A stretch of DNA of 11,381 nt, from NCBI GenBank assembly GCA_022560555.1, contig JADFSZ010000039.1, positions 1 through 11,381 of the forward strand, given 5' to 3'. This document shows, one piece after another, positions 2,966 through 10,974 of this stretch; positions within the stretch are counted from its first letter, which is position 1, and the number at the start of each line of letters is the position of its first letter. The stretch comes from JADFSZ01 sp022560555 [NCBI: PVC group bacterium]. Lineage in GTDB: Bacteria; GCA-001730085; JADFSZ01. The position numbers and the translations under genes were made by a program. Below the pieces are notes generated by a model. The model did no database searches, was not told where the DNA came from, and worked only from the letters and a program-made list of their open reading frames with translations.

Positions 2966-4390
2966 TCATCTTAGGCCATCCCAAATGGCTTCCAGGCGCT
3001 TTTTAAGATGGTCAGACGTGATCGGCCACACTGTACGGCCATATAACGCACTCATAATTTCTTTGTAAGCAAGATCATTCATACGGAACTCAGGCAGCTT
3101 ATTGTCAATTTCTAAATAATAGCGCATGAGAATTACGTACCTTTTGATGAGATTAGGAAGTAAAAAGTTCTCTCGAACATGTTCAATCCCGTTTTTTCCC
3201 ATTTGCTCACGTTCCAATTTATTCTCCAGTAAAGTTTTCATTCTTTTCGCGATTTTATCAACGTCTGACGGCTCAACGATATAACCCGTTTGTCCGTTAA
3301 TAACCTGTTTTTTTATCCCTCCGATTCTGCTTCCGATCACAGGGGTTCCCTGCCACATAGCTTCCGAAACAACCAAACCAAATCCTTCCTTGGTTGAAAC
3401 ATGCACAAAACATGTCGCGACATTCATGAGCGCTCCCACAACTTCATTGTTATTTTCGACATTAACCCAAGTATGAATATCTTTATCGCCTCCGACCTCA
3501 TCAAGAATCGTTTGATACATGGCGGCTCCTTCAGGATCGTCTGATGCTGAGTTTCCGATCATTATGAGGAGAGGCTTGATTTTACTCGGAATATTCTCTT
3601 TCATAAGCTTAAAGGCTTGAATGATTCTTTTTTGGTTTTTATGAATATCATACCGTGAGACAGCAGCCACAATAGGCCGATCGGAATCGACATTGTGTTC
3701 GTTAAATAAATCGCTGAGAATCGATAATGCTTCTTCGCGTTTATATTGTTTATTCTTTTGTTTTAAGGGATCTATACAGGGGTTAATTTCATAGGTTGGA
3801 ATTTGAAGATCGGATTTTACAAATTCCGGCGAAGTAAAGATGGCACCGTGGTAATGATTGATATAAGGGACAAGGAAACGCCATATTCTTCGGCTGGCTT
3901 GTGACGTATCGATATGACAGCGCCATAAAATATGGCCATAAATATTCCCGCTCATTAACATGGCCGCGGGCTGGGGATCGTGTACAGTGACCATGTGACC
4001 CACAATAGTTGTCTTGTGAGTATTTTCATGTAAAGTGTCGAGGTAAGCATGAAATATCTCTTCCATGGAAATAGGTTGGTCAACTCCCTGTAAAAGATTA
4101 TGAAACTTTTTTGTGACAACAAAAAATTCATCGGACCCTTCAATAACAAACCAGCGGCAATCCACTCCGAGACCTTTGGCAAAAGGGATAATACTTTGAA
4201 GCATCTCGGCAACTCCTCCGCCAACACACGTCGAATTGACATTCGCCCACACTTTATTCTCTAATGGAGCGGCCAACCACTTGAGTTCGTCAATAATTTT
4301 TTGCCCCACAAACGGCTTATAAAGATCCACATCAATAGGATCAAGCGGAACAAACTGATTTTTATAACCTTTGCTTCTGTCATCGAACAT
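2966..4390 (-). CDS. treT: TreT-like GT4 glycosyltransferase (trehalose synthase / phosphorylase type)
   Basis: This is a 474-residue GT-B glycosyltransferase. Near the N-terminus, WANVNST (48-54) followed by GGGVAEML (57-64) forms the acceptor-side glycine loop typical of the TreT/trehalose phosphorylase group in family GT4. HDPQ (137-140) and WRCHIDTS (156-163) are also typical of that group. The C-terminal nucleotide-sugar domain has SRYDIHKNQK (245-254; R246 and K251 are likely phosphate contacts) and the retaining-enzyme motif EGFGLVVSE (335-343; E335 and E343). Archaeal TreT joins NDP-glucose and glucose to trehalose in one reversible step. This protein is longer than the roughly 410-residue archaeal enzyme, with an extra C-terminal stretch of about 45 residues (430-474). 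A good ribosome binding site (AGAGGTG, 4395-4401) precedes the ATG. The gene lies 23 bp after otsB, so two trehalose-forming routes are adjacent. Phosphorylase activity is an alternative. Confidence 0.82.
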   Translation of the reverse strand: MFDDRSKGYKNQFVPLDPIDVDLYKPFVGQKIIDELKWLAAPLENKVWANVNSTCVGGGVAEMLQSIIPFAKGLGVDCRWFVIEGSDEFFVVTKKFHNLLQGVDQPISMEEIFHAYLDTLHENTHKTTIVGHMVTVHDPQPAAMLMSGNIYGHILWRCHIDTSQASRRIWRFLVPYINHYHGAIFTSPEFVKSDLQIPTYEINPCIDPLKQKNKQYKREEALSILSDLFNEHNVDSDRPIVAAVSRYDIHKNQKRIIQAFKLMKENIPSKIKPLLIMIGNSASDDPEGAAMYQTILDEVGGDKDIHTWVNVENNNEVVGALMNVATCFVHVSTKEGFGLVVSEAMWQGTPVIGSRIGGIKKQVINGQTGYIVEPSDVDKIAKRMKTLLENKLEREQMGKNGIEHVRENFLLPNLIKRYVILMRYYLEIDNKLPEFRMNDLAYKEIMSALYGRTVWPITSDHLKKRLEAIWDGLR

Positions 4391-4413
4391 TCGGCACCTC
4401 TCAACATTTTAGA

Positions 4414-5226
4414 TTATGTAATTGCCTGTGTAATTCTATTTAAAAGTCTCTTAACCTCCGATTGATGCCTAATAGTATACCTAGCCTTAGTCTTTCGGGT
4501 CTCGTCATGAACATGTATGGAGATCCCTCCCTTTCGGTTGATCACACAAAACGCGTCTTCGTCCGTTGTGTCGTCACCTATGTAAATATAGCATGTTTGG
4601 CCCGGTTTTGTCCTGCTTTGGTATATGATCTTTTCGAGAGCCTTGCCTTTGTGCCAAAGAACACGCGGCATGAGTTCAATCACTTTTTTGCCTTTAATAA
4701 CACGTATTTTGAAAAAACTCTTAATTGTTTTAAGTCTGGCTTTAATCTCGCGGCAAAACAGAGCGGTTTTATGGGCCTGAATCTTACGGTAATGAATCGA
4801 AAGCGTTGCTCTTTTATCCTCCAAAAAAGAACCGGGATATTTGGATATTATCGGTCTTAAAACCTTTTTTGACTCACGGATAAAACCTTTCATCATCTTA
4901 TGTGCAGGATGACTCCATCTCCACGATGGGCCGCACAGTTCAAATCCATGATTTCCGGCATAAAACGCGCCGGGAATACGGATGAGGTTCTTCACTTCCT
5001 TTAATAAGCGTCCTGATATAAAACCAAGTCGGACACGAGACATTTTTTGCAGTCCCAAGAGCTGTTTATATAGCCTAAGAGACAATCGAGCTTTCGAGGG
5101 ATGTCCAACGATCGGACTGAGAGTTCCGTCAAAGTCCAAAAACAAAAACAACTGCCGTTTTGATAATATTTTCTTCTTAATGACAACCCATGCACGGTCC
5201 TTGCCGTCAATAAACACTTGCCTCAC
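4414..5226 (-). CDS. otsB: Trehalose-6-phosphate phosphatase (HAD family)
   Basis: This HAD-family phosphatase removes the phosphate from trehalose-6-phosphate, the second step of the OtsAB route. Counting from the GTG start at 5226 (270 residues), it has the catalytic LDFDGTLSP motif (residues 30-38; D31 nucleophile, D33 acid/base). ISGR follows (70-73) and then GNHGFE (91-96), the sugar-recognition motif of trehalose phosphatases. A Lys-containing WHKGKAL (191-197) and the magnesium-binding GDDTTDEDAF (217-226) complete the set. An upstream in-frame TTG at 5262 would add 12 residues but overlaps otsA by 40 bp with no ribosome binding site. The GTG is preferred because it makes a 4-base GTGA overlap with the otsA stop and has GGTGA four bases upstream. 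No other Met codon occurs before residue 60. It is cytoplasmic and almost certainly co-translated with otsA. Confidence 0.9.
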   Translation of the reverse strand: MRQVFIDGKDRAWVVIKKKILSKRQLFLFLDFDGTLSPIVGHPSKARLSLRLYKQLLGLQKMSRVRLGFISGRLLKEVKNLIRIPGAFYAGNHGFELCGPSWRWSHPAHKMMKGFIRESKKVLRPIISKYPGSFLEDKRATLSIHYRKIQAHKTALFCREIKARLKTIKSFFKIRVIKGKKVIELMPRVLWHKGKALEKIIYQSRTKPGQTCYIYIGDDTTDEDAFCVINRKGGISIHVHDETRKTKARYTIRHQSEVKRLLNRITQAIT

Positions 5227-6710
5227 AGCGTCACCAATTGCTGCATAATACTTAATGCCCAATGATAAACGTTGTTAGATCGTGTGATTTTCCTGAGCTC
5301 CCTCATTCGGCTATGCTTCTCTTTCTCATCCATCTCTAACGCCACTTTGATACTATTTGCAAACTGATCGACATCAAACGGATTGATCTGCAGTGCCCTT
5401 TTATATTCACGAGCCACTCCCGTAAATTTACTCAAAATGAGAACTCCATTCAAATCATTCTTTGCCGAAACGTACTCCTTAGCCACGATATTCATTCCGT
5501 CATGGAGCGGGCTTACGATACAAACATTTGCCAAGCGGTAAAAAGCTAAAATCTCTGTCCGCGTAAGTGTTCTGCGGATAAAAATCACGGGACACCAATT
5601 TTTTGTTTTGTGTTTTTGATTCACTTCTTCAACAAGCCTGTCAATTTCTCTATTAACGTTTCTGTAAATCGCTAATTTCATACGACTCGGCGCACCCGCA
5701 ACGACAAAAATTACTTTTTCCTTAAATGCGGGATGGGATTCTAAAAACCTGTCAATAGCCATCAAGCGCTCGGGAATTCCTTTAGAGTAATCAATCCTAT
5801 CCACTCCGAAAACTATATTCGGACAATCAAGTCGGTACTCCTTCTTCATCTCTTTAGATAAATTGACGACATCTTCTTTATCGGTATCACCGGATATCGC
5901 TTCAAAATCCACACTAATGGGAAACGCTCGTACCAAGGTTTCCTTCCCCTGAAAAATCATGGTGTTTTTCTCCCAATCAACCCGGCTCTCCAAAACAGAA
6001 TTAACCGTGTGAATAAAATTGTTACAGTGATACACAATATGAAACCCCATGAGATCATTCCCTAATAGGCCTTGTAAAATCTCTTCCCCTTTTGGGCAAA
6101 TTCGAAATTGTTCGGGGCTGGGCCAGGGGATATGCCAGAATTGCGCGATACTTAAGTTTGGATTGGCTTCGCGTAAATACCGTGGTAGAAGGGCAAAGTG
6201 ATAATCTTGAATCCAAACAAACGCGTCCCGGCCATCTAAGTATTTTATTATCGCATCGGCAAATTTGCGATTCACTTTTTGATATATGCGCCATTCCTTT
6301 TCTTCAAAAGATGGCTTCGCGTAAGCAAGATGACATAAGGGCCAAAGGGCTTTATTCGCAAACCCATAGTAATATCCCTTCACCTCTTCCTGCGTAAGCC
6401 AGATTCTTTTTAACGTGTATTCCGGATTCTCTTCAGGAACCTGAACACAATCATTCTTATCGACAACCTCACGGTCCGCATCACCGGATCCGTGAGCAAA
6501 CCATATTCCGCCGCAAGCACGGACAACGGAATCAACGGCATTGGCAGCGCCTCCGGCGGGACGCATGGCCTGGATTTGACCATTCACACGATTGTGAATA
6601 TAAGGCTCTCGATTGGAGACAACAACGAGGGGTTTATTAGGAAAAAAATCCTCCATGCTCTGCCTCAGAGACTCTTTTCCCAAATAAACTTTTGATTTTT
6701 TTTGAATCAT
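5223..6710 (-). CDS. otsA: Trehalose-6-phosphate synthase (GT20 family)
   Basis: This 495-residue GT20 enzyme is expected to transfer glucose from UDP-glucose to glucose-6-phosphate. Visible motifs are VVVSNR (29-34; R34 contacts the acceptor phosphate), PAGGAANAVDSVV (51-63), VWIQDYH (165-171; D169), FWHIPWP (191-197; H193) and VDRIDYSKG (303-311; R305, K310). APSR (340-343; R343) and SPLHDGMNIVAKEYVSA (400-416; D404, E412) follow. Two positions differ from the E. coli enzyme as I recall it: FAH (71-73) where E. coli has FGW, and H403 where E. coli has Arg. Acceptor preference may therefore differ; glucosylglycerol-phosphate synthase is a less likely alternative. The gene begins 6 bp after the channel gene. 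The ATG at 6710 has only a weak ribosome binding site. A second ATG at 6656 has GAGG six bases upstream and would give an N-terminus closer to E. coli OtsA, so either start is possible. Confidence 0.9.
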   Translation of the reverse strand: MIQKKSKVYLGKESLRQSMEDFFPNKPLVVVSNREPYIHNRVNGQIQAMRPAGGAANAVDSVVRACGGIWFAHGSGDADREVVDKNDCVQVPEENPEYTLKRIWLTQEEVKGYYYGFANKALWPLCHLAYAKPSFEEKEWRIYQKVNRKFADAIIKYLDGRDAFVWIQDYHFALLPRYLREANPNLSIAQFWHIPWPSPEQFRICPKGEEILQGLLGNDLMGFHIVYHCNNFIHTVNSVLESRVDWEKNTMIFQGKETLVRAFPISVDFEAISGDTDKEDVVNLSKEMKKEYRLDCPNIVFGVDRIDYSKGIPERLMAIDRFLESHPAFKEKVIFVVAGAPSRMKLAIYRNVNREIDRLVEEVNQKHKTKNWCPVIFIRRTLTRTEILAFYRLANVCIVSPLHDGMNIVAKEYVSAKNDLNGVLILSKFTGVAREYKRALQINPFDVDQFANSIKVALEMDEKEKHSRMRELRKITRSNNVYHWALSIMQQLVTL

Positions 6711-10127: not shown

Positions 10128-10201
10128 TGGCGGCGCAGGGATTCGAACCCCGGACACGAGGATTATGATTCCTCTGCTCTAACCAACTGAGCTACGCCGC
10201 C
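10128..10201 (-). tRNA. tRNA with CAU anticodon, probably elongator tRNA-Met
   Basis: The minus strand folds as a complete 74-nt cloverleaf. The acceptor stem GGCGGCG pairs with CGCCGCC, the D arm is GCTC/GAGC with a GG-containing 9-base loop, and the anticodon stem GAGGA/TCCTC encloses loop ATCATAA (anticodon CAT). The variable loop has 5 bases, and the T arm CGGGG/CCCTG encloses TTCGAAT. The discriminator base is A and CCA is not encoded. A paired G1-C72 and the absence of the three G-C pairs in the anticodon stem exclude the initiator type. A tRNA-Ile carrying lysidine at position 34 also has a CAT gene anticodon and cannot be fully excluded, but the acceptor stem favours elongator Met. 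A short T-run follows the 3' end. Confidence 0.95.
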
Positions 10202-10238: not shown

Positions 10239-10311
10239 AGAGATTTGATTTCCTGCTCTAATGCCGAATGAGGCTTTCCTTCGAAGAATCCCTTCGGCAA
10301 GCTACGCCGCC
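10239..10311 (-). pseudogene. Decayed tRNA-Met-like copy with hairpin in place of the D-loop
   Basis: On the same strand and just upstream of the intact tRNA, parts of that tRNA recur in the same order. The first 12 bases (GGCGGCGTAGCT) are at 10311-10300. TTAGAGCAG from the D stem is at 10261-10253. A degenerate anticodon-arm-like stretch (GAAATCAAATC) follows. Between the two exact blocks the intact gene has 7 bases and the copy has 38. No 3' acceptor strand follows, so it cannot be a working tRNA by itself. It looks like a partial duplication followed by insertion and decay. Confidence 0.55.
10262..10299. repeat. 38-bp hairpin element bounded by 7-bp inverted repeats
   Basis: TGCCGAA (10262-10268) and TTCGGCA (10293-10299) are perfect inverted repeats at the exact ends of the segment that separates the two tRNA-like blocks. 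An 8-bp palindrome, CTTCGAAG, sits near the middle, so the element can fold as a long imperfect hairpin. It resembles REP-type or small non-autonomous elements in layout. No U-run follows on either strand at the right distance for a terminator. Confidence 0.5.
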
Positions 10312-10326
10312 GCAAGACTTTTTTAT

Positions 10327-10974
10327 CTATGAATCTTCTTCTATCGAATCTGCTTGATCGGCACGTGCAAGATCACCCTTTTGAACAGGAAATACATCCC
10401 CAAAAATTTTAAAAAGGACCAACTGAACATAAAAGTGGATACCCGACAAAAGAATCCAGCTAAAAGGATCTCTACGAAGCTGCCATTGCCTGAGAAATAC
10501 ATACATAAAAGTCCCAAAACCAAGCACAATAAAAAAAACAATGACGTACTCTTGAAAAACGCTTTTAATTCTCTGAATGATCTGTTTGAAATCAAAAGCA
10601 TCCTTAAAACGATATTGGAGAACGAAATTCCCGATACTCATCGGAAGCAAAAAACACATCCCGATGATAATTAATCCGGCAATGGTCGTCCATGTAGGAA
10701 AAAGCCAGCTTAACACAGTTCCTGGAACAATAATGTAGCAGCAAACAACGGCAAATATCATAACTCCATGCTTCAAAAAAAGAATCCAATCATCCCATTC
10801 CGGCAGCGACTCTTCACTTTTTTGAATACGGTTTCTATAAATTTTGGCCACATAACCTGTAGCGGCAAAATTTAAAAAAGGAACAGCATTCACAAGCCAG
10901 CCAATTAAAAATTTCTTCCACCAGCGTTCATCGGAAAATGGGTATGTAAGTGATTCGATGAAACGTAAGCTCAT
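10327..10974 (-). CDS. DUF4013 family integral membrane protein
   Basis: This 215-residue membrane protein contains the DUF4013 hallmark: GYVAKIYRNRI (40-50) followed by LPEWDDW (57-63) after the first hydrophobic segment (about 22-40). Further membrane segments lie near 69-90, 95-118, 143-161 and 172-192, and the tail is acidic. The family is widespread in bacteria and archaea and has no established function. The start is set by AAGGAG (10981-10986), six bases before the ATG at 10974. An in-frame TTG at 11025 would add 17 residues but lies upstream of that site and close to the promoter, so it was rejected. The gene is divergent from rpoN and appears to be transcribed alone or with the tRNA region downstream of it. 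The family assignment is firm; a role cannot be inferred. Confidence 0.85.
   Translation of the reverse strand: MSLRFIESLTYPFSDERWWKKFLIGWLVNAVPFLNFAATGYVAKIYRNRIQKSEESLPEWDDWILFLKHGVMIFAVVCCYIIVPGTVLSWLFPTWTTIAGLIIIGMCFLLPMSIGNFVLQYRFKDAFDFKQIIQRIKSVFQEYVIVFFIVLGFGTFMYVFLRQWQLRRDPFSWILLSGIHFYVQLVLFKIFGDVFPVQKGDLARADQADSIEEDS

What the first reader, a model, noticed from the sequence alone, without database searches (positions are those of the whole stretch)
10239..10311. tRNA-Met-like copy whose D-loop is replaced by a 38-bp hairpin bounded by perfect inverted repeats
Seen directly: a 12-base block identical to the tRNA 5' end and a 9-base block identical to its D stem recur in the same order and strand just upstream of the intact tRNA. 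A degenerate anticodon-arm-like stretch follows. The interval between the blocks is 7 bases in the real tRNA and 38 in the copy, and those 38 bases start with TGCCGAA and end with TTCGGCA. This suggests partial tRNA duplication and insertion of a small REP/MITE-like element into the D-loop. As an RNA, the copy's GGCGGCG could compete for the tRNA's 3' acceptor strand, but that is speculation.
Basis: partly seen in the sequence, partly recalled or inferred. Interest (0 to 1): 0.6.

Follow-up and report, generated by a model that had tools for sequence, protein, structure and literature searches.

The report
Remnant of a tRNA-invading endonuclease element
A broken copy of a tRNA gene, interrupted by a small DNA hairpin, looks like the leftover of a little-noticed kind of selfish element that sits in bacterial tRNA genes with a small DNA-cutting enzyme and leaves the tRNA intact beside it.

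Summary
On the minus strand, 12 and 9 bases of the tRNA-Met 5' part recur in order just upstream of the intact gene, and a 38-bp hairpin replaces the 7 bases between them. None of 2000 shuffles matches this. The hairpin belongs to a dispersed family in this genome and in Omnitrophota. In relatives the same architecture carries a gene: hairpin-broken tRNA copy, small GIY-YIG nuclease gene, intact tRNA. Of 59 nuclease loci found in 384 genomes of one phylum, 39 have a same-strand tRNA at the end of the reading frame, and 24 of those 39 frames run into the tRNA. An exact repeat of 12 or more bases of that tRNA lies across the gene in 28 of 44 tRNA-linked loci. A hairpin starts where the repeat ends in 17 of 25 tested. 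Nuclease lineages track tRNA type; a second phylum shows it too. The window's genome holds one full element. I read the finding as an element unit lacking the gene. Homing into tRNA genes is inferred: no cleavage, empty site or transposition was shown.

The parts
10128..10201 (-). intact tRNA-Met (anticodon CAT), the target gene
   Evidence: ARAGORN; Rfam RF00005 67.8 bits
10202..10252 (-). spacer with decayed anticodon-arm-like continuation of the tRNA copy; where complete relatives carry the GIY-YIG gene, this unit has none
   Evidence: alignment; homology to about tRNA nt 48, no significant tRNA 3' half; no nuclease among the ORFs of 80 aa or more, and 51 bases are too short for one
10253..10261 (-). 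9-base block TTAGAGCAG identical to bases 20-28 of the tRNA gene (D-stem 3' side)
   Evidence: sequence; shuffles
10262..10299 (-). 38-bp hairpin (TGCCGAA...TTCGGCA), single member of the dispersed, usually twin, hairpin family
   Evidence: model R1 29.1 bits, E 0.001 over the genome
10300..10311 (-). 12-base block GGCGGCGTAGCT identical to bases 1-12 of the tRNA gene
   Evidence: sequence; shuffles

Best explanation
The feature is a nuclease-less unit (remnant or non-autonomous copy) of a tRNA-gene-targeting GIY-YIG element. In complete members part or all of a tRNA gene is present twice around a gene for a roughly 85-90 residue GIY-YIG nuclease. In the commoner order the upstream copy is broken at one point by one or two GC-rich hairpins; the downstream copy is whole, and the nuclease reading frame usually runs into it or stops just before it, sometimes on the tRNA's own T8-A9-G10. 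Proposed mechanism (inferred): the nuclease cuts an element-free tRNA gene. Repair from the element uses the recipient's tRNA 5' part and the tRNA body as homology arms. Hairpin, nuclease gene and a replacement tRNA 5' part are copied in, so the cell keeps one working tRNA. Shown here: the architecture, its recurrence, the hairpin at the break, and nuclease lineages tracking tRNA type. Inferred: cutting, homing, and that the window unit once had, or was mobilised by, the nuclease.
For: Own genome: contig C153 has [tRNA acceptor strand | twin hairpin | TAGC.. | GIY-YIG ORF], then a second ORF-less hairpin unit, then an intact tRNA 5' half that continues into a group I intron. C131 has an ORF-less twin-hairpin unit before tRNA-Arg(ACG). 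C206 has a hairpin and a partial copy before a Met-like tRNA cut off by the contig end (score 15, 0 of 1000 shuffles; hairpin seen by eye). Named relatives: L122 and L119, Omnitrophota MAGs. Survey: 54 of 384 genomes have a nuclease match; of 59 loci examined 39 have the tRNA at the ORF end, 5 the mirror order, 15 none. 24 of 39 frames overlap the tRNA, 11 more stop 0-11 nt before it, and 6 stop exactly on tRNA nt 8-10. Exact tRNA repeat of 12 or more bases across the gene in 28 of 44; longer than any match at other-isotype loci in 25 of 44. Hairpin at the break in 17 of 25. Tree: 22 label changes against a shuffled mean of 40.3, 0 of 200 as low. Second phylum: 19 of 25 loci tRNA-linked, 17 of 19 with the repeat, 14 of 19 above the other-isotype maximum. 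ORF-less units beside intact tRNAs also in L213, L222, L186, L200 and L241.
Against: The window has no nuclease ORF and no recognisable ORF remnant. Its break (D-loop, 7 bases replaced, one hairpin) is matched only in kind by one ORF-bearing case, L242 tRNA-His. In the plain scan of own-genome tRNAs against their flanks the window's Met copy did not exceed its control (score 12.0, control maximum 20.5), because the hairpin splits the match; Arg-ACG did (17.0 against 14.0). The three proteins tested are single-domain, without the DNA-binding part typical of homing endonucleases; the only solved structures matched are two UPF0213 proteins named hypothetical. The hairpin family also sits far from tRNAs and inside riboswitches and RNase P RNA, so a palindrome could have entered a tRNA pseudogene with no nuclease involved. 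15 of 59 and 6 of 25 nuclease loci showed no tRNA by the same test, and 8 of 25 breaks showed no hairpin; two Glu copies (L237, L273) show none by eye either. No empty site was found; the one same-phylum genome has other neighbours at tRNA-Met, no hairpin-model hit and no nuclease match. The tree rests on 86 columns, with 30 of 57 inner branches drawn open.
Confidence: 0.68

Rival explanations
1. Plain tRNA pseudogene hit by a dispersed palindromic repeat (REP/MITE or mitochondrial double-hairpin-like), with no nuclease involved: the first reader's idea.
For: Hairpin family dispersed away from tRNAs in own genome (C131:18262, C50:5048) and inside c-di-GMP-I and TPP riboswitches and RNase P RNA in other genomes. 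No ORF in the window.
Against: Four tRNA loci of this one genome have hairpin-broken copies upstream of an intact tRNA 5' end (and the window), one with a nuclease gene. In other genomes the hairpin starts where the tRNA copy breaks in 17 of 25 loci and the nuclease gene follows.
Confidence: 0.22
2. A functional RNA element: the hairpin-bearing tRNA-like stretch is a transcribed leader that regulates the nuclease or the tRNA (processing signal, decoy or hairpin repressor).
For: In several relatives the broken copy keeps D-arm sequence and some T-arm sequence, with the anticodon arm swapped for a hairpin (by eye: Glu and Pro; Gly and Ala). Some phage homing endonuclease genes are reported to be regulated by RNA hairpins (PMC2988022, passages).
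Against: The window copy lacks the tRNA 3' half, folds no better than shuffles, and has no gene after it except the tRNA.
Confidence: 0.07
3. Transcription terminator of the DUF4013 gene that ends at 10327 on the same strand.
For: The hairpin starts 27 bases after that gene's end.
Against: No T-run follows; the scan finds no terminator-like site there. Does not explain the tRNA blocks.
Confidence: 0.03

Closest known systems
Phage SegB and other free-standing GIY-YIG homing endonucleases (T4/T6; PMC13096335 and PMC2988022, passages read)
   Same: GIY-YIG nuclease gene next to tRNA genes in phages; the 2026 paper reports tRNA enrichment near segB and microhomology between the tRNA-Tyr 5' end and the segB 3' end.
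   Different: Here: bacterial chromosomes, single-domain protein of about 85-90 residues, a second tRNA copy broken by hairpins on the other side of the gene, and reading frames that run into the intact tRNA. Whether phage segB has a broken tRNA copy was not examined.
Double-hairpin / repetitive hairpin elements of mitochondrial genomes (PMC2800124, passages)
   Same: Short dispersed palindromes, sometimes in pairs, also found inside ribosomal RNA genes.
   Different: Bacterial; here tied to GIY-YIG genes and to a break point in a tRNA copy.
UPF0213-type single-domain GIY-YIG proteins (PDB 1ywl, 1zg2)
   Same: The only solved sequences matched by the nuclease profile (E 3e-7 and 2e-4).
   Different: The entries name hypothetical proteins; their gene surroundings were not examined.
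Integrative elements and phages that use tRNA 3' ends as attB (recalled, not searched)
   Same: Element carries a replacement tRNA part so the tRNA stays whole.
   Different: Here mostly the 5' part is duplicated and a nuclease, not an integrase, lies between the copies.

Membership tests
Free-standing GIY-YIG homing element | encodes a GIY-YIG nuclease | tested here: not met
   Window: no such ORF (Pfam of 8 window proteins). Relatives with the same architecture: met, PF01541 in 3 of 3 proteins scanned.
Free-standing GIY-YIG homing element | sits beside or in a conserved gene that stays functional | tested here: met
   Intact tRNA-Met next to the copy; 39 of 59 nuclease loci have the tRNA at the ORF end. 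Function of the tRNA is inferred from its sequence.
Free-standing GIY-YIG homing element | separate DNA-recognition domain (recalled as typical) | tested here: not met
   Three proteins of 84-89 residues; GIY-YIG only, apart from one marginal overlapping T5orf172 match (20.2 bits, cut-off 20).
Free-standing GIY-YIG homing element | site-specific cleavage and biased inheritance | not testable with these tools
   needs biochemistry and crosses
Dispersed palindromic (double-hairpin-like) element | several similar copies in the genome | tested here: met
   nearest copies 78-79% identical.
Dispersed palindromic (double-hairpin-like) element | paired hairpins head to head | tested here: not met
   Window copy is a single hairpin; the model was built from twins and its best matches are full twins.
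Functional tRNA gene | complete cloverleaf | tested here: not met
   No call for the copy by ARAGORN or Rfam.
Intrinsic terminator | G+C-rich stem followed by T-run | tested here: not met
   No such site at 10262-10299.

The most novel reading that the evidence does not exclude
A phylum-spanning, undescribed class of minimal mobile elements lives in bacterial tRNA genes. A single-domain GIY-YIG nuclease cuts a particular tRNA gene at a lineage-specific point, the break is marked by hairpins, and the element brings its own replacement tRNA part, with the nuclease reading frame fused to the tRNA and ended by the tRNA's own bases. ORF-less hairpin units such as the window's ride along, and the same hairpins have spread into loops of riboswitches and RNase P RNA.
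Probability: 0.5. Interest if true: 0.85.

Novelty: new variant of a known kind. Interest (0 to 1): 0.72.

Why it matters
If right, essential tRNA genes in at least two bacterial phyla are a home for tiny selfish nuclease genes that leave a working tRNA behind, a chromosomal counterpart of phage SegB. It would explain hairpin-broken pseudo-tRNAs and nuclease genes fused to tRNA ends, give a test of how a roughly 90-residue nuclease finds one tRNA type, and raise the question of how overlap of a reading frame with a tRNA affects RNase P processing.

Tried and rejected
Chance repeat: rejected. Intrinsic terminator: no T-run. Longer dispersed repeat carrying the 12-bp block: not seen; a lone 12-mer could not have been. 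Full decayed second tRNA: the 3' half was not significant in any of six cases (p 0.056 to 0.95). Pattern CCGAAG..CATTCGG in the 59 genomes: 38 of 59 matched (own included), but the loops differ and the reversed control pattern matched in many too, so I read the foreign ones as chance. tRNA-Met locus of the only same-phylum genome: neighbours differ, no empty site. Viral contigs: no hairpin match. Phages: 20 records with a protein match, all under 60% identity; their tRNA context was not examined. One search asked for another phylum but held one genome only. The hairpin's role is left open.

Literature: nine searches of ten, in an open-licence library only. Lists were capped (for example 25 of 108 papers shown, 20 of 128). 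In what was listed I saw no paper on chromosomal tRNA-linked GIY-YIG elements. I saw listings only, and passages of PMC2800124, PMC12455944, PMC13096335 and PMC2988022.

Limits of the counts. The survey query came from Asn-type elements found here, and 3 of the 59 loci (L219, L220, L284) are loci where I first saw the pattern. Of the 15 'none' loci, L220 has an intron-bearing tRNA that the program missed, L226 a tRNA inside the frame, and L236 and L261 end close to a contig end. One search used 25 of the 44 tRNA-linked loci (downstream type, repeat of 12 or more, ending by nt 45). For the tree I set L220 and L127 to Asn and L226 to Glu by hand; ARAGORN called the C153 gene tRNA-Thr(CGT) with an intron, and I read it as Asn-like from its 5' half. 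ARAGORN called no tRNA in L119/L213; Asn-like there is my reading too. The mirror class allows the tRNA to end up to 330 nt before the nuclease core. In one search some loci are neighbours on one contig (L295/L309, L297/L310). Two of the 60 places (G102:C18) share one locus.

Full report
OBSERVATION. The intact tRNA-Met(CAT) is at 10128-10201 on the minus strand. Upstream of it on that strand are GGCGGCGTAGCT (10300-10311), a 38-bp hairpin (10262-10299), TTAGAGCAG (10253-10261) and a decayed continuation of the tRNA to about nt 48. No shuffle of 2000 reaches the two colinear blocks. The copy is not called as a tRNA and does not fold unusually well.

OWN GENOME. The window is contig C210 of a 1.66-Mb, 222-contig draft. 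Hairpins of the same design recur: 11 pattern hits, window included, against 0 for the reversed pattern; by eye 9 belong and 2 (C118, C180) look like chance. Most lie in pairs placed head to head, TCCCGAATGA..TTCGGGA followed by TGCCGAAG..CATTCGGCA. One pair lies inside a partial copy of tRNA-Arg(ACG) just upstream of the intact gene, between tRNA nt 7 and 8. Among the 30 tRNAs found by Rfam, hairpins of this pattern beside a tRNA copy were seen at Met and Arg-ACG. In the copy scan itself only Arg-ACG (17.0 against a control maximum of 14.0) stood out as such; Met scored 12.0 under a control maximum of 20.5, and two other excesses (Leu-CAG, Ser-CGA) are of other kinds. A tRNA that this search missed because a group I intron follows its 5' half (C153) and a Met-like tRNA cut off by a contig end (C206) bring the number of tRNA loci with hairpin-broken copies to four.

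THE COMPLETE ELEMENT. On C153 the order is: tRNA acceptor strand, twin hairpin, TAGC.., a GIY-YIG gene (89 aa, PF01541), a second hairpin unit without a gene, the intact tRNA 5' half. I read this tRNA as Asn-like; ARAGORN offered Thr(CGT) with an intron. A scan of named genomes for the hairpin consensus gave 16 loci, 6 of them Omnitrophota (7 matches, each 38 bp). The other 10 have no second hairpin within 60 bases and I read them as chance. In two Omnitrophota loci, L119 and L122, the same order appears at tRNA-Asn or Asn-like genes; in L122 the reading frame ends on the tRNA's T8-A9-G10.

SURVEY. A three-sequence profile (A3) matched 54 of 384 genomes of the phylum of L119's genome at E 1e-12 or better. 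In 59 loci covering the 60 places, 39 had a same-strand tRNA beginning from 70 nt before to 160 nt after the frame's stop, 5 had the tRNA on the other side and 15 had none by this test. 24 of 39 frames overlap the tRNA and 11 more stop 0-11 nt before it. An exact repeat of 12 or more bases of that tRNA was found across the gene in 28 of 44, longer than at any other-isotype locus in 25 of 44. The break point, read by eye, differs by tRNA: Asn 7/8 in all four of L219-L222; Asp after nt 13 (L231) or nt 23 (L285); His D-loop (L242); Met between D-stem and anticodon stem (L223, L224); most Glu and Pro copies have the anticodon arm replaced; Ser anticodon loop (L225, L245, L194). Two Glu copies (L237, L273) show no hairpin. 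A hairpin starts within 6 nt of the end of the repeat in 17 of 25; 15 of 25 beat 95% of letter shuffles. The nuclease tree keeps tRNA types together (22 changes, shuffled mean 40.3, 0 of 200 as low), though with 86 columns, few resolved forks and some near-copies; one supported group holds Met, Val and Arg elements, suggesting retargeting, and the C153 protein falls in the Asn group. In a second phylum, 22 of 132 genomes match; 8 of 25 loci are of the downstream type, 11 the mirror type, 6 none; 17 of 19 show the repeat and 14 of 19 exceed the other-isotype maximum. Among the 59 genomes (own, one of the same phylum, 57 others) 6 matched at E 1e-9, own included; of the 9 foreign loci 4 have a tRNA at the ORF end (L249, L250, L256, L257), 4 have it upstream (L251, L253, L254, L255) and 1 has none (L252).

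THE WINDOW IN THIS LIGHT. It is an ORF-less unit at the D-loop. ORF-less units between a gene-bearing unit and the intact tRNA occur in C153, L213, L222 and L241 (the L222 match holds a stop), in L186 after what looks by eye like a decayed nuclease end, and without a visible nuclease gene in C131 and L200. The window lacks any nuclease remnant, so that it came from such an element is an inference from architecture and hairpin kinship (model R1, 29.1 bits, E 0.001 over the genome).

MECHANISM. Shown: duplicated tRNA part, break marked by hairpin, whole tRNA beside it, nuclease frame running into the tRNA. Inferred: cutting of element-free tRNA genes and repair from the element with the tRNA itself as homology. 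The role of the hairpin is unknown; it may spoil the cut site, control translation, or be an independent passenger. The last is not excluded, because twins of this family sit within c-di-GMP-I riboswitches (L163, L164, above the curated score) and a TPP riboswitch (L216, below it), and a single hairpin sits in RNase P RNA (L211, below the curated score, truncated at a contig end).

KNOWN RELATIVES. Phage SegB is nearest in kind (passages of PMC13096335). Mitochondrial double-hairpin elements resemble the hairpins (passages of PMC2800124). Nine literature searches listed no description of this bacterial arrangement; the lists were capped, and subscription papers and preprints were not searchable.

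Noticed in passing
L163 1465-1633, L164 1454-1621, L216 1439-1626, L211 1-274: Hairpins of this family lie inside loops of c-di-GMP-I riboswitches, a TPP riboswitch and RNase P RNA in genomes of named Omnitrophota MAGs; L166, L188 and L201 flanks look like cobalamin riboswitches (recalled motif; the Rfam search did not list them).
   Followed up: partly
L127 455-673 (-), L213 2085-2328 (+): Asn-like tRNA genes next to the elements are followed within the gene by group I introns (83.8 and 86 bits).
   Followed up: no
L227, L254, L255, L302, L303: Mirror arrangement: intact tRNA first, then the GIY-YIG gene, then a partial copy of the tRNA's 3' part, by eye with a hairpin.
   Followed up: partly
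own genome C131:18262-18336 and C50:5048-5122: Twin hairpins with no tRNA in the fetched flanks.
   Followed up: partly
L050 (tRNA-Ser CGA, C205): Downstream of tRNA-Ser an inverted partial copy of its T-arm and acceptor end (score 14.5 against a control maximum of 13.0).
   Followed up: no
window 2966-6710: Trehalose synthesis cluster: TreT-like glycosyltransferase, trehalose-phosphatase and GT20 synthase on the minus strand.
   Followed up: no
L126 about 1591-1663: Two near-identical copies of ACGAGATATTTCGGGCTCCAGGTTGGGGAG, 43 bases apart, upstream of the truncated Met-like tRNA.
   Followed up: no
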